The translations under genes and the position numbers were made by a program. 34,920 nucleotides of DNA, from positions 1-34,920 of the forward strand of contig NZ_VOSS01000021.1 of assembly GCF_007997035.1 (NCBI RefSeq), written 5' to 3'. Shown here one piece after another: positions 1-34,690 of the stretch (positions are counted from its first letter, which is position 1; each line of letters begins with the position of its first letter). The stretch is from Ralstonia sp. TCR112. Lineage in GTDB: Bacteria; Pseudomonadota; Gammaproteobacteria; Burkholderiales; Burkholderiaceae. The notes below the pieces were generated by a model that had not been told where the DNA came from, searched no databases, and saw nothing but the letters and a program-made list of their open reading frames with translations.

Positions 1-100
1 TTTCCTCCTGCAACAGAAATTCAAGGCGCCATCTAGGGCAGGGGTACGGCCCACACCGTCTGGCGGCCTGCGTTGTCGCCGTCGGTTGTGCTGACTTTGC

Positions 101-5410: not shown

Positions 5411-5701
5411 ATGCTGTTCCACGTCCGCATGGATGTTCGTCTGCCGGCCGACATGCCCGCCGATGTCGCCAACGAGATCAAGGCGCGCGAGAAGGCCTAT
5501 TCGCAGGATCTGCAGCGCAGCGGCAAGTGGCGCCACATCTGGCGCCTGGTGGGCGAGTACGCGAACGTCAGCATCTTCGACGTGCAGAGCAATGCAGAAC
5601 TGCACGACATCCTGACGGCGCTGCCGCTGTTTCCGTACATGCAGATCGCCGTGACGCCGCTGTGCCGTCACCCGTCGTCAGTTCATAGCGACGATGCTTG
5701 A
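5411..5701 (+). CDS. catC: muconolactone delta-isomerase
   Basis: Small cytoplasmic enzyme (96 residues, normal for the family) that isomerises muconolactone to beta-ketoadipate enol-lactone. The start MLFHVRMDVRLPADMP is typical of CatC, as is the later GKWRHIWRLVGEYAN segment. Start chosen at the ATG preceded by AAGGAG (5399-5404); the frame is open further upstream but overlaps catB. The gap to catB is 38 bases and catA follows after 43. The enol-lactone hydrolase (catD/pcaD) needed for the next step is not in the window. Confidence 0.93.
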   Translation: MLFHVRMDVRLPADMPADVANEIKAREKAYSQDLQRSGKWRHIWRLVGEYANVSIFDVQSNAELHDILTALPLFPYMQIAVTPLCRHPSSVHSDDA

Positions 5702-5744
5702 GACATTCCACATTCCCCCAGAAAACCACGAGGAGACACCCATC

Positions 5745-6680
5745 ATGAACGCACGCGTATTCCAAACAAAAGAAGTGCAGGACCTGCTGAAGGCCGCCAC
5801 CAACCTCGACGGCAAGGACGGCAACGCCCGCCTGAAGCAGATCACCCACCGGCTGCTGGCCGACCTGTTCAAGGCCATCGACGACCTCGACATCACGCCG
5901 GACGAGGTCTGGGCCGGCATCAACTACCTGAACAAGCTCGGGCAGGACGGAGAAGCGGCATTGCTGGCGGCCGGCGTGGGCCTGGAGAAATACCTCGACA
6001 TCCGCATGGATGCTGCGGATGCGGCGCTGGGCATCAACGGCGGTACGCCGCGCACGATTGAAGGGCCGCTGTACGTTGCCGGCACAACGGTGCGCGATGG
6101 CGTGTCCAGGATCGACATCGATCCGGACCCGGCGGCAGGCCCGCTGGTCATTCATGGCACGGTGACGGGCCCGGACGGCAAGCCGGTGGCCGGCGCCGTG
6201 GTCGAGTGCTGGCATGCGAACTCGAACGGCTTCTACTCGCATTTCGATCCGACCGGTGCGCAGAGCCCGTTCAACCTGCGCGGCGCGGTCAGGACTGGCG
6301 CCGATGGTCAATATGAATTCCGCACGCTCATGCCGGTGGGCTACGGCTGCCCGCCGCACGGCGCCACGCAGCAACTGCTGAACGGCCTTGCGCGCCACGG
6401 CAACCGGCCGGCGCACGTGCACTTCTTCGTCACCAGCGACGGCCACCGCAAGTTGACGACGCAATTCAACATCGAAGGCGATCCGCTGATCTGGGACGAC
6501 TTCGCCTATGCCACCCGCGAAGAGCTGATTCCGCATGTGGTGGAAAAAACCGGCGGCACCGCGCTCGGCCTGAAAGCCGATGCGTACAAGGACATCGAAT
6601 TCAATTTCGTGCTCACGCCGCTGGTTCAGGGCAAGGACAACCAGCGCGTGAATCGTCTGCGCGCTTCGGCCGAGGCCTGA
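5745..6680 (+). CDS. catA: catechol 1,2-dioxygenase
   Basis: Intradiol ring-cleaving non-haem Fe(III) dioxygenase (311 residues) converting catechol to cis,cis-muconate, the probable CatR inducer. An N-terminal helical dimerisation/linker region (about 1-100) precedes the beta-sandwich catalytic domain. The four iron ligands are all seen: Y164 ([11 protein letters not shown]), Y200 (MPVGYG), H224 and H226 (RPAHVHFF). These match the numbering of the Acinetobacter enzyme exactly, which fixes the start at the ATG with GAGGAGA upstream (5730-5736) rather than at an in-frame codon at 5694. It lies between catC and benA, so catechol formed by the ben genes is consumed by the same series. Confidence 0.95.
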
Positions 6681-6708
6681 GGCCGGGTGCCTCAACGTGG
6701 AGACGACC

Positions 6709-8067
6709 ATGTCCGCCTTGATCGACAAAGCCAGCGAACTGGACCAGCTGCTGTCAACCGCCGTGGTGGATGACAAAGAGGCCGGAATTTACCGCTGCCG
6801 CCGCGACATCTTCACCCACCCCGATCTGTTCGCGCTGGAGATGAAGCACATCTTCGAGAACAACTGGGTGTATCTGGCGCACGAGAGCCAGATTCCAAAC
6901 AACAACGATTACTACACCACGTGGATTGGCCGCCAGCCGATCGTCATCACGCGCGACAAGACCGGCGAGCTGCATGCCGTCATCAATGCCTGCGCGCACA
7001 AGGGTGCGATGCTGTGCCGCCGCAAGCATGGCAACAAGGGCAGCTTCACGTGCCCGTTCCACGGCTGGACGTTCTCGAACACCGGCAAGCTGCTGAAGGT
7101 GAAGGACGAAAAGACCACTGAGTACCCGGTGCAATTCAACACGCACGGGTCGCACGATCTGAAGAAGGTTGCGCGGTTCGAGAGCTATCGCGGCTTCCTG
7201 TTCGGCAGCCTCAACGCCGATGTGCAGCCGCTCGAGGCATACCTGGGCGAAGCACGCGTGATCATCGACCAGATCGTCGACCAGGCGCCCGAAGGCCTGG
7301 AAGTGCTGCGCGGCAATTCTTCCTACGTCTATGACGGCAACTGGAAGATGCAGATGGAAAACGGCTGCGACGGCTACCACGTCAGCACCGTGCACTGGAA
7401 CTACGCCGCAACGATGGGGCGACGCAAGGAAGGCGGCACGCAGGCCGTGGATGCAAACAGCTGGAGCAAGTCGGTGGCGGGCGTCTATGGGTTCGAGCAC
7501 GGCCACATCCTGCTGTGGACGCAGACGATGAACCCGGAAGTGCGACCCGTCTATGCGCACCGTGACGAAATCAAGGCGCGCGTGGGTGAAACCCAGACCG
7601 ATTTCATCGTCAACCAGACCCGCAACCTGTGCCTGTATCCAAACGTCTTCCTGATGGATCAGTTCAGCACGCAGATTCGCGTGGTACGGCCCATCAGCGT
7701 CGACAAGACCGAGGTCTCGATCTTCTGTTTCGCGCCGAAGGGCGAAAGCGCAACGGACCGCGCAACGCGCATCCGCCAGTACGAGGACTTCTTCAACGTC
7801 ACGGGCATGGGCACCGCCGATGACCTGGAGGAATTCCGCGCCTGCCAGAACGGCTACGCCGGCACGACTGCGCTGTGGAACGACCTGTCGCGCGGGGCGC
7901 CGCTGTGGGTGCACGGCCCTGACGAGAACGCAACAAAGATGGGATTGAAGCCGCTCATCTCGGGCGAGCGCAGTGAAGACGAAGGCCTGTTCGTCTGCCA
8001 GCACGAATACTGGGTGCGCGTCATGCGCGAGGCGCTCAAGCAGGAATGCGAAGGAGTGCCGGCATGA
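6709..8067 (+). CDS. benA: benzoate 1,2-dioxygenase large (alpha) subunit
   Basis: Oxygenase alpha subunit (452 residues) of the Rieske dioxygenase that cis-dihydroxylates benzoate. Rieske 2Fe-2S ligands C95/H97 and C115/H118 (CAH...CPFH) are present. The mononuclear iron site shows D221, H224 and H229 in DGYHVSTVH, with an acidic third ligand expected near the ADDLEEF segment. Start at the ATG (6709) after GTGGAGA; an in-frame GTG 12 bases upstream is part of that ribosome site. Stop overlaps the benB start (ATGA). Substrate range (benzoate versus toluate, XylX-like) cannot be settled from sequence alone, but the companion genes favour benzoate. Confidence 0.93.
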
Positions 8068-8552
8068 GCGCTGATTACCAAACGATCTGCGCCGCCCTGT
8101 ACCGCGAGGCGCGCTTGCTGGACGACCGGCAGTGGGACGCGTGGCTCGACTGCTACGCCGAAGACGTCACGTACTGGATGCCCGCCTGGGATGACGACGA
8201 CCAGTTGACCGACGATCCGCAGAGCCAGATCTCGCTGATGTACTACGCCAATCGCTGCGGGCTGGAGGATCGCGTCTTCCGCATCAAGACCGAGCGCAGC
8301 GGGGCTTCCACACCCGAGCCGCGAACGAGCCACACGGTCGCCAACGTGGAAGTCCTGGCCGAACGCGGCGATGAAGTCGACGTGCGTTACAACTTTCACA
8401 CGCTCAGCCACCGGTACAAAACCACCGACCACTTCTTCGGCACGATGTTCGTCACCCTGCGCCGCGCGGGCGACGGCTTCCTGATCGCATCCAAGAAAAT
8501 CGTCCTGAAGAACGACTACATCCGGCAGGTGCTCGACGTTTATCACGTCTGA
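8064..8552 (+). CDS. benB: benzoate 1,2-dioxygenase small (beta) subunit
   Basis: Beta subunit (162 residues) of the ring-hydroxylating dioxygenase, a cone-shaped SnoaL/NTF2-like fold that supports the alpha trimer and has no cofactor. Family features include [20 protein letters not shown] near the N-terminus and the [10 protein letters not shown] strand. Start ATG overlaps the benA stop by four bases and has AAGGAG at 8051-8056, so translation is coupled. An in-frame upstream codon lies inside benA and is not needed. benC follows after 47 bases. Confidence 0.93.
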
Positions 8553-8599
8553 TGTGCACACCCGTATAGGACACGCAAAAGAGGCAGCGGAGGTATTCC

Positions 8600-9628
8600 A
8601 TGTCCAGTTTCACAGTCGCACTGAATTTCGAGGACGGGGTGACCCGTTTCATCGACTGCAAAGCGGGCGAGAAGGTGCTCGATGCCGCCTTCCGCGCCAA
8701 GATCAACCTGCCGATGGATTGCTCCGACGGTGTGTGCGGAACCTGCAAGTGCCGCGCCGAAAGCGGAAGCTACGACCTCGGTGACGATTACATTGACGAC
8801 GCCCTGAGCGAAGACGAGAAAAACACCGGCCTCGTCCTGACGTGCCAGATGGTGCCGCACAGCGATTGCGTGATCGCGGTGCCGACCTCGTCGACGGCCT
8901 GCAAAACGGGGCAGAGCACCTTCGCCGCCACGGTGTCGAACGTCGAGCTGCATAACGATGCAGCGGTCATCCTGGAGCTGGAAGTGGATGCCGAGGCGCC
9001 GGTGTTTCTGCCGGGCCAGTACGTCAACATCGGCGTACCGGGCAGCGGGCAGCACCGTTCGTATTCGTTCTCTTCTGCGCCCGGCGAGTCGAAGATCAGC
9101 TTCCTCATCAAGAAAATTCCCGGCGGCGCGATGAGCCGCTGGCTCGAAACCGCACAGCCCGGCGACAAGCTTGATCTGCAAGGCCCGCTGGGCAGCTTCT
9201 ATCTGCGCGATGTGCAGCGGCCGCTGTTGTTCCTTGCCGGCGGCACGGGGCTCGCGCCGTTCCTGTCGATGCTTGAAGTGCTGGCGCGCACCCATTCGCA
9301 GCAGAAGGTGCACCTGATTTATGGCGTCACCCGTGACCTCGACCTGGTGCAGGTCGATGCGATCGATGCCTATGCAGCGCGGCTGCCGAACTTCAGCTAC
9401 GCCACGGTCGTCGCCGACGCCGCGTCGAATCATCCGCGCAAGGGTTGGGGGACGCAGCACGTGCCGGCCGATGCGCTGAACGATGGCGACGTCGACGTCT
9501 ATCTGTGCGGGCCGCCGCCAATGGTCGATGCAGTGCGCAAATACTTTGACGACCAAGGCGTGAAGCCGAGCAGCTTTTACTACGAGAAGTTCACGCCCAA
9601 TGCGGTACCGGAGGCGAAGGCGGCATGA
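8600..9628 (+). CDS. benC: benzoate 1,2-dioxygenase electron-transfer component (ferredoxin:NADH reductase)
   Basis: Soluble reductase (342 residues) passing electrons from NADH via FAD and a 2Fe-2S centre to BenAB. Plant-type ferredoxin domain first (about 1-98) with ligands C41, C46, C49 and C82; then an FAD domain (RSYSFSS) and an NAD domain (GGTGLAPFLSML, CGPPPM). GGAGG lies 9 bases before the start. The stop overlaps the benD start (ATGA). Domain order (ferredoxin-FAD-NAD) is that of BenC/XylZ. Confidence 0.93.
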   Translation: MSSFTVALNFEDGVTRFIDCKAGEKVLDAAFRAKINLPMDCSDGVCGTCKCRAESGSYDLGDDYIDDALSEDEKNTGLVLTCQMVPHSDCVIAVPTSSTACKTGQSTFAATVSNVELHNDAAVILELEVDAEAPVFLPGQYVNIGVPGSGQHRSYSFSSAPGESKISFLIKKIPGGAMSRWLETAQPGDKLDLQGPLGSFYLRDVQRPLLFLAGGTGLAPFLSMLEVLARTHSQQKVHLIYGVTRDLDLVQVDAIDAYAARLPNFSYATVVADAASNHPRKGWGTQHVPADALNDGDVDVYLCGPPPMVDAVRKYFDDQGVKPSSFYYEKFTPNAVPEAKAA

Positions 9629-10406
9629 GCATGCAACGGTTCTCAGGCAAAGCCATCGTCGTGACGGGTGCGGCGCAAGGTATCGGGCGCGGCGTGGCAA
9701 TGGCTGCGGCAGAAGAGGGCGCGCCGTGCTGCTGGTGGACCGGGCCGAGCTGGTCTACGAAGTGCAGGCCGAGATTGCTGCAGCGGGCGGCCAAACCCAC
9801 GCCACCACGGCGGATCTTGAAACCTACGCCGGCGCTCAACATGCCGTACAAACTGCGCTGGATGCCTTCGGCCGCATCGACGTGCTCATCAACAACGTCG
9901 GCGGCACGATCTGGGCGAAGCCGTATCAGCACTATGAAGAAGCGCAAATCGAAGCGGAAATCCGCCGCTCGTTGTTTCCCACGCTGTGGTGTTGCCGCGC
10001 CGTGCTGCCGCACATGGTGGAGCGCCGGCAGGGCGTGATCGTCAATGTGTCGTCGATTGCCACGCGCGGTATCTATCGGATTCCGTATTCGGCGGCCAAG
10101 GGCGGGGTGAACGCGTTGACGGCAAGCCTCGCCATGGAGCACGCGCAGGACAATATCCGCGTCAATGCCGTCGCCACGGGCGGCACCGAAGCGCCGCCGC
10201 GGAAGATCCCGCGCAACACGGCGCCCATGTCGGAGCAGGAGGCGGTCTGGTATCAGGGCATCGTCGACCAGACCATTGCCAGCAGCCTGATGCACCGCTA
10301 CGGCACGATCGAGGAGCAGGTGCGGGCGATCCTGTTTCTGGCTTCGGACGACGCTTCGTACATCACCGGGACGGTGTTGCCGGTGGGCGGCGGAGATCTG
10401 GGCTAG
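9625..10406 (+). pseudogene. benD: benD, dihydroxycyclohexadiene carboxylate dehydrogenase, frameshifted
   Basis: Short-chain dehydrogenase that would oxidise the benzoate cis-diol to catechol with loss of CO2. The start (ATG coupled to benC) encodes the NAD motif VVTGAAQGIGRG. After EEGA (base 9723) the frame is lost; the rest of the enzyme continues in the -1 frame from VLLVDRAELV through NNVGG, NVSSIATRG and the catalytic YSAAK to GGGDLG at 10406. The join reads GCG CC GTG, one base short of a codon; restoring a G (GCG CGC GTG) gives the expected EGARVLLVDR. The starting frame ends at 10038 after 137 codons, and the second frame has no plausible start of its own. The rest of the gene looks intact and catalytic residues are present, so this is either a very recent mutation or a sequencing error in a GC run. 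Confidence 0.88.
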
Positions 10407-16494: not shown

Positions 16495-16704
16495 TCAGTC
16501 GATCAGCGCAAAGCGCGGCACCTGCCGGCCGTCAACTTCAACCATCTCGTGGAACATCGTCGATGGGCGTGTCCAGATCGTGCCGTTGGCGGCGCGATAG
16601 ACCGTCATCTTGATGGCGGGATCGGGCTCGTACGTGGCCTCGCACAGCCATTCGTATTCGCCGCCCTTGTAGTGCCGGTAGCGGCGGGTTGACGGGACTT
16701 GCAT
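16495..16704 (-). CDS. DUF1653 domain protein
   Basis: Small protein (69 residues) consisting almost entirely of a DUF1653 domain: RYRHYKGGEYEWL, VVYRA-like TVYRAANGTIWTRP, then MFHEMVEVDGRQVPRF. Function unknown. Start taken at MQVPSTRRYR; a longer frame upstream overlaps the zinc-ribbon gene. It is 7 bases after that gene and abuts the DUF817 start, so the three form one unit on the minus strand. Confidence 0.85.
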   Translation of the reverse strand: MQVPSTRRYRHYKGGEYEWLCEATYEPDPAIKMTVYRAANGTIWTRPSTMFHEMVEVDGRQVPRFALID

Positions 16705-16711
16705 GGCGGCT

Positions 16712-17059
16712 TCAGTGTTGCGTGGGCTTGTCTTCTTCGTCGACGTAGGGGACGTGCTTGCCTTCCTGCGTCTGCGCGCCGAGCTTGGCATCTTCCATGG
16801 CGTCCTGGTAAGCCAGCATGGCCGCGGCCACGGCTTCGGGTTCGCCGTTGAAGGAAATCACGCTTTCGCCGCAGTTCGGGCATTCGCCGCCGAAGATGGC
16901 GTGGATGCCGGGCATGTCGCGCGGCTCCATCCCTTCGAATTCGGTAAAGGCGGTCTGGCAGGCGCCGCAGACAAGCTTTTCGGGGCGCAGGGCCTCCAGC
17001 CGGGCGTGCGCCTGAGAAATGCGGTCGGCCTGTGAGCCGCGTCGTTTGGCTTCGCCCAT
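16712..17059 (-). CDS. zinc-ribbon protein with MGEAKRR N-terminus
   Basis: Protein of 115 residues beginning MGEAKRRG, a recurring start of small metal-binding proteins (SEC-C-type and related). Two Cys pairs, CGAC (about 32-35) and CPNC (about 60-63), should bind one zinc. The C-terminal third is acidic with many Glu/Asp residues. No enzyme motif is visible. It is first of a tight minus-strand trio with the DUF1653 and DUF817 genes. Role unknown. Confidence 0.8.
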   Translation of the reverse strand: MGEAKRRGSQADRISQAHARLEALRPEKLVCGACQTAFTEFEGMEPRDMPGIHAIFGGECPNCGESVISFNGEPEAVAAAMLAYQDAMEDAKLGAQTQEGKHVPYVDEEDKPTQH

Positions 17060-17138
17060 GATGTTCTTCCTGATTCAGATGATTGGAGGGTGGATCATAC
17101 CGAACGGCGCGGCACGGCTGCCAGTTCGCGCCGCCCGC

Positions 17139-17543
17139 TCAGCGTTCGGCCAATCGCTTCAGCGCGGCCAGAACGTCGGGAAAATCCGATGTGACCATCG
17201 GCCCGAATGCAGCGGCATCGGGGCCCGTGATCTCGGTGCGATAGACGATCTTCGTGCGGCCGGACGGTAGGCTGACGAGCTGATGATCCACCAGTACGCG
17301 GGTGCCGTCGACCACCGTCTCGTCGACAAAACCTTCGTTGGGACGCACGTCGACAAGCGTGCTGATGAACGGGTCTTGCCCCGGCGGCTGCATGGTGAAC
17401 TGCGTACCGTTGGCAAACGGCCCGTGGAGTTCAATGCGCTCGATGCCGGCATTCCAGTCGCCCCATTTCTCAACGTTGGCGAGCAGTTCCCAGACGCGGG
17501 CGGGCGAGGCGGTCGTTTCGATGCTCTCTTCGTGAATCCACAT
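17139..17543 (-). CDS. SRPBCC (START-like / polyketide cyclase) family protein
   Basis: Protein of 134 residues with the START-like fold pattern: IEETTASPARVWELLANVEKW-type opening (WIHEESIETTASPARVWEL), then WNAGIERIELHG, and a long C-terminal helix (DFPDVLAALKRLAER). Such proteins bind hydrophobic ligands in a deep pocket; the ligand here cannot be told. Lies 79 bases upstream of the zinc-ribbon gene on the same strand and divergent from the yjdM-like gene. Confidence 0.8.
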   Translation of the reverse strand: MWIHEESIETTASPARVWELLANVEKWGDWNAGIERIELHGPFANGTQFTMQPPGQDPFISTLVDVRPNEGFVDETVVDGTRVLVDHQLVSLPSGRTKIVYRTEITGPDAAAFGPMVTSDFPDVLAALKRLAER

Positions 17544-17720
17544 AAGCGGCTCCGGGTGTATTTCGATGTGTGGTCAGGCACCGCCCATGGCAGCGCTGCC
17601 GAGGTATAGATTGCGGCGGATCGGGCTGCAAGGTACAGGCACGCGGCAGCAGCCGGCAACTGTCGCGCGCATCTCGGCTGATATAGTGCGGCCCCTTTGA
17701 CCATATTCGCGAGCTTCGCC

Positions 17721-18059
17721 ATGTCTACGATTCCCGCCTGCCCAAAATGCGCCTCTGAAAACACCTATCAGGACGGCGAACTCTATATCTGCCCAGACTG
17801 CGCGCACGAATGGAATCCGTCGGCGCAGGAAGATGAAGAAGAGACGGCGCTGGTCATCAAGGACGCCAACGGCAATCCGCTGAATGCCGGCGATTCCGCA
17901 ACGCTGGTGAAGGACCTGAAGCTCAAGGGCGGGTCGGGCACGCTCAAGGCGGGCACCAAGATCAAGAACATCCGGGTGGTGGCGGGCGACCATCCGATCG
18001 ATTGCAAGATCGATGGGGTGAGCTATCTGCTCAAGCCGGAGTTTTTGAAGAAGGCTTAG
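17721..18059 (+). CDS. yjdM: YjdM/PhnA-type zinc-ribbon protein
   Basis: Protein of 112 residues. N-terminal zinc ribbon with two CxxC pairs (CPKC at about 8-11 and CPDC at about 25-28, in [10 protein letters not shown]), then the SH3-like C-terminal domain ([20 protein letters not shown] and [15 protein letters not shown]). The family was once linked to alkylphosphonate use (PhnA) but YjdM is not phosphonoacetate hydrolase; its real role is unclear. The ATG at 17721 gives the conserved N-terminus but lacks a clear ribosome site; a TATAGT at 17682-17687 may be its -10. Convergent with the NepI-like gene, with the dif-like site between. Confidence 0.88.
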
Positions 18060-18102
18060 TGGGTGGGTTGTGGTAAGGCCGGCGGATGCTGGTCGATGTT
18101 TT

Positions 18103-18130
18103 ATTTAACATAACACAAATTATCCGAAAT
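18103..18130 (-). other. dif: XerCD recombination site (dif-like)
   Basis: Read on the minus strand the 28 bases split into ATTTCGGATAA (XerC arm), TTTGTG (centre) and TTATGTTAAAT (XerD arm). The XerD arm is identical to that of E. coli dif. The XerC arm fits the proteobacterial form RNTKCGCATAA at 10 of 11 positions. The six-base centre differs from TGTATA of E. coli, as second-chromosome dif sites may. It lies in an AT-rich island in the 135-base gap between two convergent genes, and no phage or mobile element is inserted at it. FtsK-orienting motifs in the window point toward it from both sides. Whether this is the primary or a secondary replicon cannot be told. Confidence 0.85.
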
Positions 18131-18194
18131 ACAGGCGAGCGAGCCGGGGGCGCTGCACATAGCCAGCCAACCCCACGGCGCGCATCTCGCCATG

Positions 18195-19406
18195 TCACTC
18201 GGCCATCGCCGGCACCACCTCAACGCGTTTGGGCACGCCCGTCACGATGGTCGCAACGGCAATCGCCAGCACCACGGCGGCGCCGATGAACACGCCGGCC
18301 GCGCCGTTCGCGTCGAACACCACGCCGCCGGCTGCCGCACCGGTCGCAATCGCCAGCTGCACGGCGGCGACGATCAGGCCACCCGCGCTTTCTGCTTCGT
18401 CTGGCACGGTGCGTGTCACCCATGTCGACCACGCGACCGGCACGCCGCCAAACGCCATGCCCCACAGTGCGATGAGCACGGCGTCGATGACCGGCGCGCG
18501 GCCCAGCGCCACGAGCGCGATGCCCAGCACGACCATCAGCGCCGGCATTGCGATCAGCATTGGGCGCAGCCGGTGTTCCAGCACGCGGCCGGCCAACGAT
18601 GTGCCGACAAAGTTGGCAATGCCATAGCCCAGCAGGATTGCCGACAGCCCGTTCACGCCAACGCCCGCCACCTGCTCCAGGAACGGCCGCAAATACGTAA
18701 AGAACGCAAAGTGCCCGGTGAACACGAGGATCGTCGCGAACATCCCGATGCCGACGGATGGACGGCGCAGCACATCGATGAGCGTGCGCAGCCGCGTCGT
18801 GCCGCTCGGCGCCATCGATGGCAGTGTGGCGACTTGCGACACGAACGCCAGCACGCCGAGCGCAGCCGCAGCAAGGAACACATTGCGCCAGCCGATCAGG
18901 TGGCCGAAGTAGCTGCCGAGCGGCGCGGCGGCAATCGTGGCGACGGCGACGCCGCTGAAGATGATCGATAGCGCCCGCGGCACCAGCGCGGCGGGCACAA
19001 GGCGCATTGCGGTAGCCGTGGCCATGGTCCAGAAGCCGCCGAGCGCAATACCAAGCACCACGCGGCCGATCAGGATCGTCGTCAGGTTGGTCGCAAACGC
19101 CACGGCAAGATTGGATGCCACGAGCAGCACCGAAAACGCCAGCAGCACGCGCCGCCGGTCGATGGCGCGCGTGACGGCGGCGGTCAGCAAGCTGGTGACG
19201 AGGGCGACCGTTGCGGTGGCCGTGACGGCCTGCCCTGCCACGCCTTCGGTCACGCCGAGGCTTTCCGCCATGGGCGTCAGCAGGCTTGCGGGCAAGAATT
19301 CGGCCGTGACGAGCCCGAACACGCCCAGCGCCATCGCAAAGACGGCGCCCCAGGCAGGTTCATGCGGGGCCGCGACTGCGGCGGCCGTAGAGGTTCCGGG
19401 ATTCAT
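18195..19406 (-). CDS. MFS efflux transporter, NepI-like
   Basis: Twelve-span major facilitator (403 residues, DHA1 group). The opening WGAVFAMALGVFGLVTAEFLPASLLTPMAESLGV pattern, here seen as AEFLPASLLTPMAESLG, with EGVAGQAVTATA, GRVVLGIALGGFW, GHFAFFTYLRPF and PVAWSTWVTR, closely follows E. coli NepI, a purine-ribonucleoside exporter; related drug or sugar exporters are possible. Start chosen at MNPGTSTAAA (19406) with ACGGAA upstream; the frame is open to 19508 but that part covers the likely operator region. Divergent from an AraC regulator that probably controls it. Confidence 0.87.
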   Translation of the reverse strand: MNPGTSTAAAVAAPHEPAWGAVFAMALGVFGLVTAEFLPASLLTPMAESLGVTEGVAGQAVTATATVALVTSLLTAAVTRAIDRRRVLLAFSVLLVASNLAVAFATNLTTILIGRVVLGIALGGFWTMATATAMRLVPAALVPRALSIIFSGVAVATIAAAPLGSYFGHLIGWRNVFLAAAALGVLAFVSQVATLPSMAPSGTTRLRTLIDVLRRPSVGIGMFATILVFTGHFAFFTYLRPFLEQVAGVGVNGLSAILLGYGIANFVGTSLAGRVLEHRLRPMLIAMPALMVVLGIALVALGRAPVIDAVLIALWGMAFGGVPVAWSTWVTRTVPDEAESAGGLIVAAVQLAIATGAAAGGVVFDANGAAGVFIGAAVVLAIAVATIVTGVPKRVEVVPAMAE

Positions 19407-19467
19407 GCGTCGTTCCGTAGAAAGAGTCAGGGAAAGTACCAATAAGGCCGCATGGTAGGGCGCGTCA

Positions 19468-19518
19468 ATCGGACGGTCTATGACATACAATCCGATCTTG
19501 TTGATCATTCGTCCGAAT
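19468..19518. promoter_or_regulatory. candidate operators between the nepI-like and araC-type genes
   Basis: Three TCCGA half-sites occur in this short gap: one inverted (TCGGA, 19469-19473) and two direct (19491-19495 and 19512-19516) exactly 21 bp apart. The first two form ATCGGA-N17-TCCGAT, and the third lies in the palindrome ATTCG-TC-CGAAT (19507-19518). Direct half-sites two helical turns apart are typical of AraC-family operators. Confidence 0.45.
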
Positions 19519-19525
19519 ACTTGCG

Positions 19526-20488
19526 ATGCCCACTCCCCTCCCCGACGTGCATGACCTTGTCAGCGAGCTGCTGCTGGGCATGCGGCTGAGCGGTGTCCAG
19601 TACCGCCGTATCCACGTGGCGCGGCCCTTCGGGCTGAGCTTTGGCGAGGCGCCGGGGCGTGCGCAATTTCACTTCGTTGGCCGCGGGCCCGTGCTGCTGC
19701 GCGATGCGTCGGGCGCAACGATGCGACTCGAAGCTGGCGATGCGGTGTTGCTGCCGCAGGGCACCCCGCATGCGCTGTTGTCCGATCCGGATGCGCCGTG
19801 CCGCGAGATCGCCGGCTTTGAAGCCGCGAAGATCTGCGACACGGTGGCGTCGGTGGGTGCCGGTACGGAAGCGGCTCCGGGCGATGCGCTCATTTTCAGC
19901 GCGTGCATGGAGCTGGACCTGGGCGGCATGCAGCCCCTTGTCGGCACGATGCCGGAGTTCATGCACGTCGGCACCCTGCTTGCGCGCTATCCGGAAATCC
20001 GCCCGATGCTCGACGCGATGGAGCGCGAATCGTGCTCCGAGCGCGCAGGTTTTGCCGGCATCCTGGCGCGACTGGCGGACGTGGTGGCCGCCTTCATCGT
20101 GCGCGGCTGGGTGGAATGCGGCTGCGGCGACGCGACGGGCTGGGTGCAGGCCCTGCGCGAGCCGAAACTCGGTCGCGCGATCGTCGCCCTGCACCGTGAC
20201 CCGGGCCGCAACTGGAGCGTCGCGGAGCTGGCGGCGCAAGCCGGCGTCTCGCGCTCGGTATTTGCCGAGCGCTTCCTGGCGGCGACCGGAATGACGCCCG
20301 TGCGCTATCTGACCGAGCTGCGGATGCGGCTCGCCGCGCAATGGATCACGCGTGACCGCGAGGCGATCGAGGCCGTCGCGTATCGGCTCGGCTACGGGTC
20401 GCTCGCTGCGTTCAGCCGCGCATTCAAACGGGTGGTTGGGCGGCCGCCTGGGGCCATGCGCGCAGAAGGCGCCGAAGTTGAGGCGTGA
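19526..20488 (+). CDS. AraC-family transcriptional regulator with cupin N-domain
   Basis: Regulator of 320 residues. N-terminal cupin-like sensing domain (about 1-180; FHFVGRGPVLLRDASG, LEAGDAVLLPQGTPHALL) of the AraC_binding_2/cupin_6 kind that often accompanies exporter or oxidoreductase genes. C-terminal double helix-turn-helix (about 210-310; SVAELAAQAGVSRSVFAERF, IEAVAYRLGYGSLAAFSRAF). No convincing ribosome site precedes the ATG. Divergent from the NepI-like exporter with 119 bases between. Effector unknown. Confidence 0.88.
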   Translation: MPTPLPDVHDLVSELLLGMRLSGVQYRRIHVARPFGLSFGEAPGRAQFHFVGRGPVLLRDASGATMRLEAGDAVLLPQGTPHALLSDPDAPCREIAGFEAAKICDTVASVGAGTEAAPGDALIFSACMELDLGGMQPLVGTMPEFMHVGTLLARYPEIRPMLDAMERESCSERAGFAGILARLADVVAAFIVRGWVECGCGDATGWVQALREPKLGRAIVALHRDPGRNWSVAELAAQAGVSRSVFAERFLAATGMTPVRYLTELRMRLAAQWITRDREAIEAVAYRLGYGSLAAFSRAFKRVVGRPPGAMRAEGAEVEA

Positions 20489-22986: not shown

Positions 22987-24198
22987 ATGACCAAAGCCCC
23001 CACGCTCACGCCGTTCCAGCTGTTGCCGCATCTGCTGCCGCCCGTCCATATCGATGCAGAAACGTTCGTCAACATCCGCCGCCAGATCCACGCGCAGCCT
23101 GAACTCGGTTTCGAGGTGGGCGCGACAAGCACATTGGTGGCTGATCTGCTCAAGAGCTGGGGCTACGAGGTCCACACCGGCATCGGCAAGAGCGGCGTGG
23201 TCGGGCAGCTGAAACTCGGCAACGGCACGCGCCGCCTTGGCATTCGCGCCGACATGGACGCCCTGCCCATCGTGGAAGCGACCGGCCTGCCTTACGCCAG
23301 CCGCAATCACGGCAAGATGCACGCGTGCGGCCACGACGGGCACACCGCCATCCTGCTCGCCGCGGCCAAGGCACTGGCCGAGAGCCGCGACTTTGACGGC
23401 ACGCTGAATCTCATCTTCCAGCCCGATGAAGAAAACCTGTGCGGTGCGCGCGCCATGATCGAAGACGGCCTCTTCGAGCGCTTCCCCTGCGATGCCGTCT
23501 ATGCCCTGCACAACATGCCCGGCGTGCCGGCCGGCAGCTTCCGCGTGCTGCCGGGGCCGGTGAGCCTGTCTTCCGACGTGGCCGACGTCACCATCAAGGG
23601 CATGGGCGGACACGGCGCGATGCCGCATCGCGCGCGGGATCCGATTGCCGCATCGGCCGCCATCATCACCGCCTTGCAGACCGTGGTCGCACGCAACGTC
23701 GCGCCCGACGACACGGCGGTGGTGTCGGTCGGATTCATTCGCGGCGGGGCCACGCACAACGTGATTCCCGAATCGGTGACGATCGGCCTGAATGTGCGTG
23801 CGGCGCGGCCGGAAACGCGTGCGCTGGTGGAGATGCGCATTCGCGAGATCGTCAGCCTGACCGCACAGGCCCATGGCGTCGAGGCGCAGATCGACTATCG
23901 TCAATTGACGCCGCCGATGGTCAACACCGAGGCCGAGACGCAGCTGGCGCAGCAGGTCTGTACCGAACTGGTGGGCGCGGCCAACGTCGTCACGCAGGCG
24001 CCCAAGGGGCTCAACGGCAGCGAAGACTTTGCCTGGATGCTCAATGAAGTGCCGGGTTGCTACCTGATCCTCGGTAATGGCGAAGGCGAATTCGGCGGCT
24101 GCATGGTGCACAACCCCGGCTACGACTTCAACGACCAGGTGTTGCCGTTGGGCGCTGCCGCCTGGGTGCGTCTGGCACAGACCTACCTGACCGCGTGA
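22987..24198 (+). CDS. M20D amidohydrolase (hippurate hydrolase / IAA-amino-acid hydrolase type)
   Basis: Cytoplasmic zinc/manganese amidohydrolase of 403 residues. Catalytic domain contains RRQIHAQPELGFE, the GIRADMDALPI motif, and metal ligands in ACGHDGHT (C114, H116), E148/E149 (QPDEEN) and H175 (ALHNMPG); the dimerisation lid (about 195-310) carries GMGGHGAMPHRARDPI. These enzymes cleave N-acyl or N-aroyl amino acids. The family signature here reads QPDEE where QPAEE is usual. GGAG at 22975 precedes the start. Operon with the MHS transporter and an amidase. Exact substrate unknown. Confidence 0.9.
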   Translation: MTKAPTLTPFQLLPHLLPPVHIDAETFVNIRRQIHAQPELGFEVGATSTLVADLLKSWGYEVHTGIGKSGVVGQLKLGNGTRRLGIRADMDALPIVEATGLPYASRNHGKMHACGHDGHTAILLAAAKALAESRDFDGTLNLIFQPDEENLCGARAMIEDGLFERFPCDAVYALHNMPGVPAGSFRVLPGPVSLSSDVADVTIKGMGGHGAMPHRARDPIAASAAIITALQTVVARNVAPDDTAVVSVGFIRGGATHNVIPESVTIGLNVRAARPETRALVEMRIREIVSLTAQAHGVEAQIDYRQLTPPMVNTEAETQLAQQVCTELVGAANVVTQAPKGLNGSEDFAWMLNEVPGCYLILGNGEGEFGGCMVHNPGYDFNDQVLPLGAAAWVRLAQTYLTA

Positions 24199-24218: not shown

Positions 24219-25694
24219 ATGCAAGCGAATCCGAGCCACGCAGCCACACCGGCGGCCGCCAACGAAGAGATCGTGCAATGGAGCGCGATTGAACTCTCCC
24301 GGCGCATCCACGCGCGCGATGTGTCGTGCGTGGAAGTCATGGAAGCGTTCCTCGCGCAGATCGATCGTCATAACCCGACGGTGAACGCGGTCGTGGCCCG
24401 CATCGATGCCGAATCGGCCATCGACCAGGCACGTGAGCGCGATGTGCTGCTCTCGCAGGGCTTGTCCGGCGGTTGGATGCACGGCTTTCCTCAGGCGCCG
24501 AAGGATCTTGCCGCCACCGCCGGCATGGTGACGGCGATGGGCAGTCTCGCCTTGGCGCGCAATGTGCCGACGCATGACAGCATCGTCGTCGAGCGCATTC
24601 GCCGGCAGGGCACCGTGCTGATCGGCAAGACGAACACGCCGGAGTTCGGGCTCGGCTCGCACACCTACAACCGCGTATACGGCATCACGCGCAACGCCTG
24701 GAACCCCGAGCGCTCGACCGGCGGCAGCAGCGGTGGCACAGCCGCCGCGCTGGCGCTGAACATGCTGCCCGTGGCCGACGGCAGCGACATGATGGGCTCG
24801 CTGCGCAACCCCGCCGCCTGGAACAACATCTACGGCCTGCGCCCGAGCCTCGGTCGCGTACCTTACGGACCGACCGGCGACGTGTTCTTCCAGCAACTCG
24901 GCACCGAAGGCCCGATGGCGCGCAATCCGCAAGACCTCGCCTGGTTGCTCGCCACGCAGGCCGGCTACGACCCGCGTGCGCCGCTGTCGCTGAGCGACGA
25001 TCCGGCGTGCTTCATGCAGCCGCTGCACCGTGACTTCCGGCAAGCCCGCATTGGCTGGTTGGGCGATTTCGGGGGCTACCTTGCCATCGACGCCGAAGTG
25101 CTGGCCGTCAACGAGCATGCGCTCGACACGTTCGACACGCTGGGCTGCCATGTCGAGACCGTGCGGCCTTTCTTCGCCATGGATGCGCTATGGGAATGCT
25201 GGTGCACGCTGCGCGCGCTGAGCGTGTCCGGCAACCTCGGCCTGCTGTACGCCAACGCCGCCACGCGCGATTTGCTCAAGCCCGAAGCGATCTGGGAAAT
25301 CGAGCACGGACGCAGCCGCACTGCCATCGACATCAACCGTGCCATCGCCACGCGTGCGAGCTGGTACCAGGCGCTGCTGCGGCAGTTTGCGCACTACGAT
25401 TTCCTCGTCCTGCCGTGCACGCAGGTTGCGCCCTTCCCTGCCGAAGAACATTGGCCCAAGACCGTCGCGGGCCGCGCGATGGACACGTATCACCGCTGGA
25501 TGGAGGTCGTGATTGGCGCCACGCTGGCGGGCGTACCGGCCGCCAGCGTGCCATCGGGCCTCACTGCGGATGGCCTGCCGCTGGGCTTGCAGGTGATTGC
25601 GCCGCCACGGTCGGAGTTCGCCCTGTTGCAACTTGCGGCCGCGTGGCACGAGGCGTTTGTGCCGGCGCGTGCTACGTCGCCGCTATTGCACTGA
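24219..25694 (+). CDS. amidase (amidase-signature family)
   Basis: Amidase of 491 residues with the Ser-cisSer-Lys triad: K95 (APKDLAA), cis-Ser S170 in GGSSGG, and nucleophile S194. The strand before the nucleophile reads GSDMMGSLR where most members have GSDxGGSIR; spacing S170 to S194 is the canonical 24. It hydrolyses a carboxamide to acid plus amine or ammonia; the substrate is not evident. Third gene of the transporter operon, 20 bases after the peptidase. Its last 12 bases overlap the end of the convergent LysR gene. Confidence 0.9.
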   Translation: MQANPSHAATPAAANEEIVQWSAIELSRRIHARDVSCVEVMEAFLAQIDRHNPTVNAVVARIDAESAIDQARERDVLLSQGLSGGWMHGFPQAPKDLAATAGMVTAMGSLALARNVPTHDSIVVERIRRQGTVLIGKTNTPEFGLGSHTYNRVYGITRNAWNPERSTGGSSGGTAAALALNMLPVADGSDMMGSLRNPAAWNNIYGLRPSLGRVPYGPTGDVFFQQLGTEGPMARNPQDLAWLLATQAGYDPRAPLSLSDDPACFMQPLHRDFRQARIGWLGDFGGYLAIDAEVLAVNEHALDTFDTLGCHVETVRPFFAMDALWECWCTLRALSVSGNLGLLYANAATRDLLKPEAIWEIEHGRSRTAIDINRAIATRASWYQALLRQFAHYDFLVLPCTQVAPFPAEEHWPKTVAGRAMDTYHRWMEVVIGATLAGVPAASVPSGLTADGLPLGLQVIAPPRSEFALLQLAAAWHEAFVPARATSPLLH

Positions 25695-26612
25695 CGAAGG
25701 CGCGTGTGCCGTATTTTTGCGGCAGGCGCATAGCCAGTCCCACGCAGCACGCACGGCGGCGTCTTCAAGCCGCGCAGCCGGCACCAGGGCCCAGAAGGCA
25801 TAGCGCTGGATGACCGGCGCCGCGAATGGCTGGACCAACGTGCCCGCCTCCAGCGCATCGCGCACCAGCGGCAGGTTCGCCAGGATCACGCCCTGCCCGG
25901 CCATTGCCGCCGACATGGCATGCCCATCGTCGGACAGCACGATGCCCGCGTCCGTCTTCAGCGTGTGCTCGATACCCGCCGCGCGCGCCCACATCGGCCA
26001 GCCGATCGCTTGCGGCAGCGTGCGCTGCCATTCGGAATGGATGAGTGGCACGCGCGTCAGATCGTCGTGCGACTGCACTTTCAGGCCCGGGTGGCAGACG
26101 GGCGCATAGGCGTCGCCAAAGAGCCGTTCGGTGACGAGCCCATTCCCCATGGCCGGCGTATCGCCATAGCGCACGGCAAGGTCTGCGCTGCCGCCATGCA
26201 AATCGACCACGGTGTCGGACGCATGAATGCGCAAATCCACCTCCGGATGCTGCGTCGCAAATTCACCCAGCCGCGGCACCAGCCAGCGCGCAGCCAGCCC
26301 CATCGGTGCCGTGAGCGTCACGCGCTGACGCCCCGGTTGTGCCTGCGTGCCGCAAATGGCATCGATGGCCTGCGCAAACGCGTCAAAGCCGGTATTGAGC
26401 ACCGGGTACAGCTGCTCGCCGGCAGCCGACAGGCGCAGGGCGCGTACGTGGCGCTCGAACAGCACCACGCCGAGCGCATCTTCCAGGCGGCGAATCTGAT
26501 GGCTGACGGCCGTGGGCGTGACCGACAGCTCGTCGGCAGCGCGTTTCATGCTGAGGTGGCGCGCGGTGGCTTCAAAGGCCCGCAGCGCGCTCAGGGGTGG
26601 CAGTTTTCGCAT
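25683..26612 (-). CDS. LysR-type regulator (GcvA/AmpR-like)
   Basis: LysR regulator of 309 residues beginning MRKLPPLSALRAFEATARHL, then AADELSVTPTAVSHQIRRLE, the pattern of the GcvA/AmpR/TrpI branch. Effector domain follows from residue 90. Start at 26612; the frame is open upstream to 26738 but that stretch is the divergent promoter gap. No strong ribosome site. It is divergent from the AzoR-like gene and convergent with the amidase, so its target is probably the reductase. Confidence 0.87.
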   Translation of the reverse strand: MRKLPPLSALRAFEATARHLSMKRAADELSVTPTAVSHQIRRLEDALGVVLFERHVRALRLSAAGEQLYPVLNTGFDAFAQAIDAICGTQAQPGRQRVTLTAPMGLAARWLVPRLGEFATQHPEVDLRIHASDTVVDLHGGSADLAVRYGDTPAMGNGLVTERLFGDAYAPVCHPGLKVQSHDDLTRVPLIHSEWQRTLPQAIGWPMWARAAGIEHTLKTDAGIVLSDDGHAMSAAMAGQGVILANLPLVRDALEAGTLVQPFAAPVIQRYAFWALVPAARLEDAAVRAAWDWLCACRKNTAHAPSSVQ

Positions 26613-27438: not shown

Positions 27439-28289
27439 TCGATCAGCCGCCCGTCCGGCTCGAAGAACGGATGCGGGCCATCGAATTGCCCCACGTAGGC
27501 GAGGTGGCTCACCAGGCCCTGCCCCGGCACCCACGCGTGCACCTTGTAGGCGGGCGGCTCCATGACGAAGCCGGGCTCGCCGTCCGGGTCGAGATCCAGC
27601 GCCACCTGGTGCGCCGGCGACGGGCAAGTCGAAGCCACCGTCCCGGCAAACCGCACGTCAATGGAGCGATGCAGATGGCCGCAGAGGATGCGCTCGACGT
27701 TGCCGGCGGCACGCACGATCTGCGCGAAAGCCGGGATGTCTTCGGCGGCGAGCGATTGCACGTCCATGTGGCCGATGCCCGTGGCAAACGGCGGGTGATG
27801 CATCGCGATGACGGTCGGGCGTTGCGTTTCGCGCGCCAGCGCTTCGGCCAGCCAATCCAGGCGCTGCACGCCCAGGCGACCGCCCGGATGGCCGGTGTCG
27901 AGCGTGTCGATCGCGATCAGGCGAACGTCGCCAATGTCGGTCCAGTACTGGAAGGCGTGTGTGTCTTGCGCATCGGCCGGAATGGGCGCGAGCCAATCGG
28001 CAAAGGCTTCGCGCGCGGCGTCACGGCCGTCGTGGTTGCCGAGCACCGGCAGCATGCGGATGCCAGCCGCATCGAGCGGCGCCAGCACCGCGCGCAGGTG
28101 CGCATATTCCTCGGGCGCGCCGGCGTCGACGAGGTCGCCGGTCAGGACGATGGCTTCCGGTTTCTCCGGCTGCGCCAGGATATGGGCCACGCAGCGCGCC
28201 AAATACGCCGCCGAATCCACGCGCCGATAGGCCAGTCGCCCCGGGCGCTTGATATGAAGGTCGGTCAGTTGCAGGAAGTGCATCGGCAT
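27435..28289 (-). CDS. metallophosphoesterase, CpdA/GpdQ-like
   Basis: Cytoplasmic dinuclear-metal phosphodiesterase of 284 residues with no signal peptide. Metal ligands: D10 and H12 (LTDLHI), D52 (TGDLVD), N85/H86 (GNHD), the MHHPPF histidine and GHLH near residue 200. This order matches the class III cyclic-nucleotide and glycerophosphodiester phosphodiesterases (CpdA, GpdQ). Start ATG shares one base with the ATPase TGA (TGATG), so it is the last gene of the ABC operon. This suggests a phosphodiester, or something released with one, is the imported substrate. Confidence 0.88.
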   Translation of the reverse strand: MPMHFLQLTDLHIKRPGRLAYRRVDSAAYLARCVAHILAQPEKPEAIVLTGDLVDAGAPEEYAHLRAVLAPLDAAGIRMLPVLGNHDGRDAAREAFADWLAPIPADAQDTHAFQYWTDIGDVRLIAIDTLDTGHPGGRLGVQRLDWLAEALARETQRPTVIAMHHPPFATGIGHMDVQSLAAEDIPAFAQIVRAAGNVERILCGHLHRSIDVRFAGTVASTCPSPAHQVALDLDPDGEPGFVMEPPAYKVHAWVPGQGLVSHLAYVGQFDGPHPFFEPDGRLID

Positions 28290-33385: not shown

Positions 33386-34690
33386 ATGCGCGTATCGCCC
33401 GTTCTTGATGTGCCGACCACCGCCCTGCCCGCGCTGATGCAGCACTACGGCGTGGTGCGGGCGCAATCGCTGGCCCTGGTCGCGCCGCTGTCCGACGCCG
33501 ATGCCACCGTCCAGTCCATGGACGACGCCAGCCCCGCCAAATGGCATCTCGCCCATACGACGTGGTTCTTTGAAGAGTTCATCCTCGGCCCCAACGTGCC
33601 GGGCTATCGCTCGCCCGATGCCCGCTACCGGTACCTGTTCAATTCCTACTACGAGACGGTCGGCGCGCGGCATCCGCGCCCGCGCCGGGGCATGCTCACG
33701 CGCCCCACCCTCGACGAGGTGCGCGCCTATCGCGCCCATGTCGATGCGGCCATGCAGCGCTTGCTGGCCGACGGCGTATCGGACGATCTTGGCCGCCTCG
33801 TGACGCTCGGCCTGCACCACGAGCAGCAGCACCAGGAGTTGCTGCTGACCGATCTTCTCCACCTGTTTGCGCAGAATCCGCTGTGCCCGGCCTATGCCGA
33901 AGCGCCCGCAGCACGCATGCATGCGGCCCCGGCGCAACCGGGTTGGGTCAACTTCCAGGGCGGCGCCGTCCAGATCGGTAAAACGGATACAGGAGCCGAC
34001 TCCGATTTCATGTTCGACTGCGAAGGCCCGCGCCACACCGTCTGGCTGGAGCCCTATGCGTTGGCCACGCACCCTGTCACCAACCGTGAATGGCTCGCCT
34101 TCATGCAGGACGGCGGCTATCGGCAGCCAACGCTGTGGCTGTCCGACGGCTGGGCGTGGGTGCAGCGCGAAGCCATTGATGCCCCGCTCTACTGGCGCGC
34201 CGGCATGGACGAGGCCGAGGGATGGCAGCAGATGTCGCTGCATGGTCTGCAGCCGGTGGATCTGGACGCGCCGGTCACGCATGTCAGCTTTTACGAGGCC
34301 GATGCCTACGCCCGCTGGGCCGGCGCCCGCCTGCCGACGGAAGCCGAATGGGAGCACGCCGCAGAAGGCCTGCCCGTGCAAGGCAACTTCGCCGGCCGGG
34401 GCGCGCTACGCCCACTGCCTGACCACGGCATTGCCGAGGCCGGCAGCCTGCGTCAATTGTTCGGTGATGTGTGGGAATGGACTGCCAGCCCTTATGGCCC
34501 GTATCCGGGCTTCGAGCCGGCCGAAGGCGCCGTGGGCGAATACAACGGCAAGTTCATGTGCAGCCAGATGGTGCTGCGCGGCGGATCGTGCGTGTCGCCC
34601 GAGGGGCATCTGCGGGCGACATATCGCAACTTCTTCTATCCGCATCAACGGTGGCAGTTCACCGGAGTCCGGCTGGCGCGGCGGGCGTGA
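33386..34690 (+). CDS. egtB: EgtB-type iron-dependent sulfoxide synthase (ergothioneine biosynthesis)
   Basis: Protein of 434 residues with an N-terminal DinB-like domain (about 10-165) and a C-terminal formylglycine-generating-enzyme-like domain (about 185-434; VTHVSFYEADAYARWAG, RLPTEAEWEHAA, LFGDVWEWTASPYGPYPGFE). The non-haem iron histidines are H57 (WHLAHTTWFFE) and H145/H149 (HHEQQHQE). EgtB joins hercynine to a thiol donor with O2. Start at MRVSPVLDVP with TGGAG upstream. The partner egtD (histidine methyltransferase) is not adjacent on either side in this window. A related selenoneine or ovothiol-type role is less likely by length and motifs. Confidence 0.9.
   Translation: MRVSPVLDVPTTALPALMQHYGVVRAQSLALVAPLSDADATVQSMDDASPAKWHLAHTTWFFEEFILGPNVPGYRSPDARYRYLFNSYYETVGARHPRPRRGMLTRPTLDEVRAYRAHVDAAMQRLLADGVSDDLGRLVTLGLHHEQQHQELLLTDLLHLFAQNPLCPAYAEAPAARMHAAPAQPGWVNFQGGAVQIGKTDTGADSDFMFDCEGPRHTVWLEPYALATHPVTNREWLAFMQDGGYRQPTLWLSDGWAWVQREAIDAPLYWRAGMDEAEGWQQMSLHGLQPVDLDAPVTHVSFYEADAYARWAGARLPTEAEWEHAAEGLPVQGNFAGRGALRPLPDHGIAEAGSLRQLFGDVWEWTASPYGPYPGFEPAEGAVGEYNGKFMCSQMVLRGGSCVSPEGHLRATYRNFFYPHQRWQFTGVRLARRA

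What the first reader, a model, noticed from the sequence alone, without database searches (positions are those of the whole stretch)
18103..18130. A XerCD dif-like site: the window spans a replication terminus
The 28-bp site has an XerD arm identical to E. coli dif (TTATGTTAAAT), an XerC arm (ATTTCGGATAA) fitting the proteobacterial form at 10 of 11 positions, and a 6-base spacer (TTTGTG) that differs from the canonical one. It lies in an AT-rich island between convergent genes. Filamentous phages and other Xer-using elements integrate at such sites; here the site looks empty. A divergent spacer would suit a second chromosome or megaplasmid.
Basis: partly seen in the sequence, partly recalled or inferred. 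Interest (0 to 1): 0.85.

Follow-up and report, generated by a model that had tools for sequence, protein, structure and literature searches.

The report
Main-chromosome dif site, swapped spacer
This is the ordinary site where a bacterium separates the two copies of its main chromosome, but its six-letter core matches the version that many relatives keep on their second chromosome, a small natural test of how such bacteria keep their chromosomes apart.

Summary
Window 18103-18130 (minus strand) is ATTTCGGATAA-TTTGTG-TTATGTTAAAT, unique in the window and the better of two dif-like sites found in its 5.4 Mb draft genome. It is the dif of the main chromosome: the locus is syntenic with the dif locus on dnaA-bearing contigs of same-genus genomes. 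FtsK-orienting octamers converge on it in the window (2/0 left, 0/6 right); around 33 dif sites of the genus they point inward 134 times and outward 3. In a relative's 3.5-Mb dnaA contig GC skew changes sign at the orthologous site. So "terminus" is supported; "second chromosome or megaplasmid" is not. One detail is unusual. At this locus 14 of 16 genomes carry spacer TTTGCA; this one carries TTTGTG, the second-replicon spacer of 8 of 16, including the closest relative. This genome's second-replicon dif has a third spacer, TTAGGA. The 28-mer is one base from a dif beside a filamentous prophage on a relative's second replicon. The swap is shown. Its origin by phage or inter-replicon exchange, and a later shift of the second replicon to avoid fusion, are inference. 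The site is empty here.

The parts
18103..18130 (-). dif site of the main chromosome: XerC arm 18120-18130, spacer TTTGTG 18114-18119, XerD arm 18103-18113 (read on the minus strand)
   Evidence: exact sequence; orthologous position to dif in relatives
17697..18059 (+). PhnA/YjdM-domain gene, XerD-side neighbour of dif
   Evidence: Pfam PF03831, PF08274; same neighbour in relatives without an insertion on that side
18195..19508 (-). MFS transporter gene, XerC-side neighbour of dif
   Evidence: Pfam PF07690; same neighbour in most relatives, lost in G009 and G012
36..43 (+). KOPS-like GGGCAGGG pointing to dif
   Evidence: KOPS motif recalled from E. coli
11499..11506 (+). KOPS-like GGGCAGGG pointing to dif
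19536..19543 (-). KOPS-like GGGGAGGG pointing to dif
23261..23268 (-). KOPS-like GGGCAGGG pointing to dif
25431..25438 (-). KOPS-like GGGAAGGG pointing to dif
25891..25898 (-). KOPS-like GGGCAGGG pointing to dif
27517..27524 (-). KOPS-like GGGCAGGG pointing to dif
33423..33430 (-). KOPS-like GGGCAGGG pointing to dif

Best explanation
The site is the dif of the main chromosome of a two-replicon Burkholderiaceae bacterium (genus inferred to be Ralstonia). XerC binds one arm and XerD the other. FtsK, steered by inward-pointing KOPS, brings two dif copies of a chromosome dimer together and activates XerD; strand exchange across the 6-base spacer separates the sister chromosomes. Position, arms, spacer length, KOPS polarity and the presence of XerD, a second Xer-like recombinase and FtsK genes are shown here; the reaction itself is inferred from the family. 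In this lineage the usual main-chromosome spacer TTTGCA has become TTTGTG, the spacer that many relatives carry on their second replicon, and the second replicon here carries TTAGGA instead, so the two replicons still differ; that this keeps Xer recombination from fusing them is inferred. The stated confidence is for the main-chromosome dif and the spacer allocation. Where the new allele came from is less sure: I lean to a copy of a phage-remade or second-replicon dif, left after an Xer-using phage or similar element came and went, with plain mutation close behind.
For: Unique site, none in shuffles. Same neighbours as the dif locus of relatives: aligned lengths of about 10 kb on the XerC side and 8.5 to 10 kb on the XerD side in G001, G004, G005, G006 and G015; G004 is 96.3% and 94.3% identical on the two sides. 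In four relatives with long contigs the locus lies at 42-46% of a 3.4-3.8 Mb contig with dnaA near its start: G007, G008, G011, G015 (positions, lengths, dnaA). KOPS GGGNAGGG in the window: 2 forward and 0 reverse left of the site, 0 and 6 right. In up to 10 kb on each side of 33 dif sites of 16 genomes, this one included: 134 toward, 3 away. On G015's main chromosome KOPS are 16:3 before and 2:22 after dif, and skew is positive in 9 of 11 sampled stretches before dif and negative in 9 of 9 after. FtsK gamma domain and XerD above curated cut-offs in the own genome, with a second Xer-like recombinase below the XerD cut-off. Spacer allocation in 16 genomes. Nearest known site is that of L258, 1 of 28 different.
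Against: The own genome is in 292 contigs, so skew could not be computed on its own replicon; a relative was used as proxy. The KOPS signal inside the window alone is small (8 motifs), and the skew change inside it is weak (+0.019 to -0.009). No Xer recombination was tested. Main-chromosome spacers vary elsewhere too: G010 has TTATGA, and the published GMI1000 chromosomal site has TTTATC (PMC2731167, passage), so a changed spacer by itself is not rare. The phage or inter-replicon origin rests on a likeness of 28 bases: under a null drawn from observed dif variation, 4 changes land within 1 of L258 with frequency 0.004, and within 1 of any of 32 non-canonical sites with frequency 0.022; the comparison was chosen after seeing the match. 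The own genome shows no Zot-family match, a negative of limited weight because I did not test whether that model finds the L258 protein.
Confidence: 0.95

Rival explanations
1. The window belongs to a second chromosome or megaplasmid and the site is that replicon's dif.
For: The spacer TTTGTG is the one that 8 of 16 genomes of the genus have on their second replicon.
Against: The window from 6360 to its end matches, with gaps, the fetched stretch of G007's dnaA-bearing contig, and the flanks of the site match G015's dnaA-bearing contig. The second-replicon dif of this genome is on C267, whose XerD side is collinear over about 10 kb with G004:C4 and over about 3.5 kb with G007:C2, the contig of G007 that lacks dnaA.
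Confidence: 0.02
2. Rival to the last step only: the swapped spacer is plain mutation. Four substitutions arose on this lineage and happen to resemble the second-replicon spacer and the phage site.
For: The intergenic flanks next to dif are poorly conserved even between close relatives. Only two spacer bases differ. The null gives 0.004 to 0.022, not vanishing. Other main-chromosome spacers in the genus have changed as well (G010).
Against: The common 28-mer is identical in 7 relatives and differs at one base in G015 and G011. All four changes here are shared with one other known site, L258. The second-replicon spacer changed on the same lineage.
Confidence: 0.4
3. The site is a dead scar of an excised phage and the working dif is elsewhere on the main chromosome.
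For: Viral contigs L282 and L289 show phage-like sequence at this locus in relatives, and the arm and spacer resemble a site beside a prophage, L258.
Against: No other dif-like site on the main chromosome in a 97.6% complete draft at up to 3 mismatches. KOPS converge here. The XerD arm and inner XerC arm are intact.
Confidence: 0.02

Closest known systems
Chromosomal dif of Proteobacteria (Carnoy and Roten 2009, PMC2731167; passages read)
   Same: 28 bp, XerC and XerD arms with 6-base spacer, low G+C, intergenic, at the terminus, a distinct site per chromosome
   Different: Spacer TTTGTG is not in the passages seen; their R. solanacearum GMI1000 chromosomal site is CCATCGCATAA-TTTATC-TTATGTTAAAT
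dif1/dif2 of Vibrio cholerae and other multi-chromosome Proteobacteria (Val et al. 2008, PMC2533119; passages read)
   Same: Two replicons with divergent central regions served by one XerCD pair and FtsK; the authors propose that identical spacers would fuse chromosomes
   Different: Here the main-chromosome spacer equals the one that sister species use on the second replicon, with a different one on its own second replicon
dif-integrated filamentous phages (CTXphi type; phiRSS0 of R. solanacearum, PMC3816273 and PMC4471427; passages read)
   Same: Viral contigs from relatives join phage-like sequence to this locus or to the second-replicon dif, with hybrid dif sites
   Different: No prophage beside the site in this window

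Membership tests
chromosomal dif site (XerCD/FtsK dimer resolution) | 11-bp XerC arm, 6-bp spacer, 11-bp XerD arm | tested here: met
chromosomal dif site (XerCD/FtsK dimer resolution) | one per replicon | tested here: met
   one site on C124 and one on C267 in the own genome at up to 3 mismatches; draft assembly
chromosomal dif site (XerCD/FtsK dimer resolution) | at the GC-skew switch opposite the origin | tested here: met
   by synteny in relatives only: 42-46% of contigs with dnaA near the start in G007, G008, G011, G015, skew switch in G015; not computable on the own draft
chromosomal dif site (XerCD/FtsK dimer resolution) | KOPS polarity converges on the site | tested here: met
   window 2/0 and 0/6; 6 toward and 0 away within 10 kb
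chromosomal dif site (XerCD/FtsK dimer resolution) | XerC, XerD and FtsK encoded in the genome | tested here: met
   FtsK_gamma twice; XerD above cut-off and a second Xer-like recombinase below the XerD cut-off, read as XerC but not tested with an XerC model
chromosomal dif site (XerCD/FtsK dimer resolution) | cleavage and recombination by XerCD | not testable with these tools
   needs bench assay
second-replicon dif | lies on the replicon without dnaA | tested here: not met
   synteny with dnaA-bearing contigs
occupied phage attachment site | prophage genes between two dif-type junctions | tested here: not met
   both flanks match the chromosomal flanks of relatives; no Zot-family match in the own genome

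The most novel reading that the evidence does not exclude
The main-chromosome dif of this lineage was overwritten by a phage-remade second-replicon dif (inner XerC arm plus spacer), and the second replicon then moved to a third spacer. The spacer would then act as an exchangeable replicon identity tag that is re-diverged after a clash, so that XerCD does not fuse the chromosomes.
Probability: 0.3. Interest if true: 0.6.

Novelty: new member of a known kind. Interest (0 to 1): 0.3.

Why it matters
Val et al. proposed that non-homologous chromosomes must keep different dif spacers to avoid fusion. A lineage whose main chromosome holds the spacer of its sisters' second replicon, while its own second replicon holds another, is a natural case for testing that rule. 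The genus survey (the two spacers differ in 16 of 16 genomes as assigned here) also shows how phages and other insertions sit beside dif while it stays intact. The site itself is ordinary.

Tried and rejected
Second-replicon origin of the window: rejected by synteny. tRNA-associated integration: no tRNA in the window. Resident filamentous prophage in the own genome: no Zot-family match at E 0.001; the same search found Zot in 2 of 16 genomes (G003, G013), and whether the model finds the L258 protein was not tested. A named record for the genus: none of the organisms shown was of it (plasmid searches with 16500-19700 and with the C267 stretch; one search lists 12 of 68 records and the commonest names; phage search with L258, no match). 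So 'Ralstonia' is inferred from genome layout, dif type and phage relatives. That IMG taxon 642555151 is R. pickettii 12J is recalled. Phage relatives of L258 (8 loci scanned) gave varied dif-type sites in 4 of 8 but no second copy of the CGGATAA-TTTGTG site; of 18 viral stretches with a CGGATAA arm only L258 has spacer TTTGTG. A look at TTTGTG-like sites in other genera of the family (39 of 398 genomes matched with up to 1 mismatch, genus included; 8 loci read) showed the spacer is not confined to this genus; those 8 loci do not hold the PhnA/YjdM gene or the neighbouring MFS gene of this window (7 window proteins compared). A chromosome fusion in G010 was considered when its dif showed a main-chromosome XerC side and a second-replicon XerD side; the yjdM side resumes about 53 kb further on, so it looks like an insertion, not a fusion.

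Full report
Observation. It is unique in the window, absent from 100 shuffles at up to 3 mismatches, and unique in the 5.44-Mb own genome at that tolerance. A looser pattern with free spacer adds one site, on contig C267. The site is in the 135 bp between two convergent genes, a PhnA/YjdM-domain gene and an MFS transporter.

Which replicon. The own genome is a draft (292 contigs, 97.6% complete), so I used the genus. All 16 genomes have dif-like sites. The window's flanks match the main-chromosome dif locus of the others. In G001, G004, G005, G006 and G015 the aligned length is about 10 kb on the XerC (MFS) side and 8.5 to 10 kb on the XerD (PhnA/YjdM) side; in others one or both sides are shortened or interrupted by insertions or losses. 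G004 is closest (96.3% and 94.3% over the two sides). In G007, G008, G011 and G015 the contig with this locus has dnaA within its first 1.2 kb and is 3.4 to 3.8 Mb long, with dif at 42 to 46% of its length (positions, dnaA, lengths). The window is therefore the main-chromosome terminus.

Terminus signals. The octamer GGGNAGGG (KOPS of E. coli, recalled) points at the site from both sides: 2 forward and 0 reverse on the left, 0 forward and 6 reverse on the right. In up to 10 kb on each side of 33 dif sites from the 16 genomes, this one included, 134 point toward and 3 away. Twenty stretches sampled along G015's main chromosome give KOPS 16:3 before dif and 2:22 after, and skew positive in 9 of 11 stretches before and negative in 9 of 9 after. 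Within the window the skew is +0.019 left and -0.009 right of the site, a weak effect. The genome encodes two proteins with an FtsK gamma domain, one XerD above the curated cut-off and one further Xer-like recombinase below it.

Spacers. Sites were assigned to replicons by flanks or by sharing a contig with the second-replicon block; G005:C25 and G012:C6 rest on weaker flank likeness. The main-chromosome spacer is TTTGCA in 14 of 16 genomes, TTATGA in G010 and TTTGTG in the window's genome. The second-replicon spacer is TTTGTG in 8 (G003 to G008, G014, G015), TGTATC in 4 (G002, G009, G010, G011), TTTATG in G001, TTAAGG in G012, TCTATC in G013 and TTAGGA in the window's genome. On these assignments the two spacers differ in 16 of 16. 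A further site in G009 (C1, TGTATA) was not assigned; its KOPS do not converge clearly (1 toward, 1 away). The closest relative, G004, has TTTGCA and TTTGTG at the two loci, and its second-replicon DNA next to dif is 95% identical to C267 over 9.8 kb. So both spacers most likely changed on the lineage of the window. Published work supports the background: each chromosome has its own dif spacer (PMC2731167, passages), and identical spacers were proposed to cause fusions, with one exception noted in a Burkholderia (PMC2533119, passages). The GMI1000 chromosomal site in PMC2731167 has spacer TTTATC (passage), so main-chromosome spacers vary beyond the genomes surveyed here.

Where the allele may come from. 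Against the common main-chromosome dif the window differs at positions 6, 7, 16 and 17. All four bases occur together in one other site I found, in viral contig L258, which differs from the window at one base. L258 carries a protein of the Zot-like family and a rolling-circle Rep. Its far end, 875 bp, matches second-replicon DNA beside the G014 dif at 100%; a further 1126 bp near its other end matches the same G014 contig at 100% but in the opposite orientation, so the two are not simply the same locus. At the far end a chromosomal XerC arm is joined to a degenerate XerD-like half. I read this as a CTXphi-type integration that leaves one remade dif with a phage XerC arm and the host spacer; that reading is inference. 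Viral contigs L282 and L289 join main-chromosome flank of this locus to phage-like sequence at the dif; I did not annotate their genes. A null drawn from the variation of 36 other distinct sites puts four changes within one base of L258 at frequency 0.004, and within one base of any of 32 non-canonical sites at 0.022. That is suggestive, not proof, and was set up after the match was seen. Strand exchange alone would not move the inner XerC-arm bases without the neighbouring flank, so a deletion between near-repeats or a gene conversion would be needed; this too is inference.

Conclusion. An ordinary, intact-looking main-chromosome dif with an uncommon spacer allocation. I did not find a report of this allocation in the listings or in the passages read, but these searches were not aimed at it alone and most subscription papers are not held.

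Noticed in passing
G010:C1:90225-143051 (L207, L329, L330): About 53 kb, of which about 46 kb is collinear with gaps to second-replicon DNA of G011 (C2 from about 1,569,723 to the end of the fetched stretch), sits between the main-chromosome dif and the yjdM side in G010, where the dif spacer is TTATGA. KOPS still converge at dif. No second dif was found at the far end; misassembly not excluded.
   Followed up: partly
L213 10190-13610 (G000:C267): On the XerC side of the own second-replicon dif lie a heavy-metal P-type ATPase gene and an epimerase gene that are absent at this place in G004; the epimerase region recurs beside the G012 second-replicon dif.
   Followed up: partly
L258 1361-1388 and about 7978-7991: Filamentous prophage at a second-replicon dif with one intact dif and one degenerate junction, like CTXphi integration.
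   Followed up: partly
L130, L131, L141, L257, L321, L324, L325, L327, XerC side of dif: Related ends with 'cgacatt' motifs recur near XerC arms across the family; they may be insertion sequences that target dif, as the IS1202 family does in Acinetobacter.
   Followed up: no
G009:C26 and G012:C7, XerC side of dif: The MFS and AraC-type genes next to dif are missing; homology to the window resumes 2.36 kb out in window terms, at 1.1 kb in G009 and 60 bp in G012.
   Followed up: no
G003:C115 and G003:C480, XerD side: Both dif sites of G003 share a 277-bp phage-like stretch on the XerD side, and the XerD arms look exchanged between the two sites.
   Followed up: no
G000:C284 and G000:C24: Two proteins with an FtsK gamma domain in the own genome.
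   Followed up: no
window 5694-10406: Gene cluster that looks like aromatic-ring degradation: a catechol-type dioxygenase, a Rieske ring-hydroxylating dioxygenase with reductase and a short-chain dehydrogenase, near the terminus.
   Followed up: no
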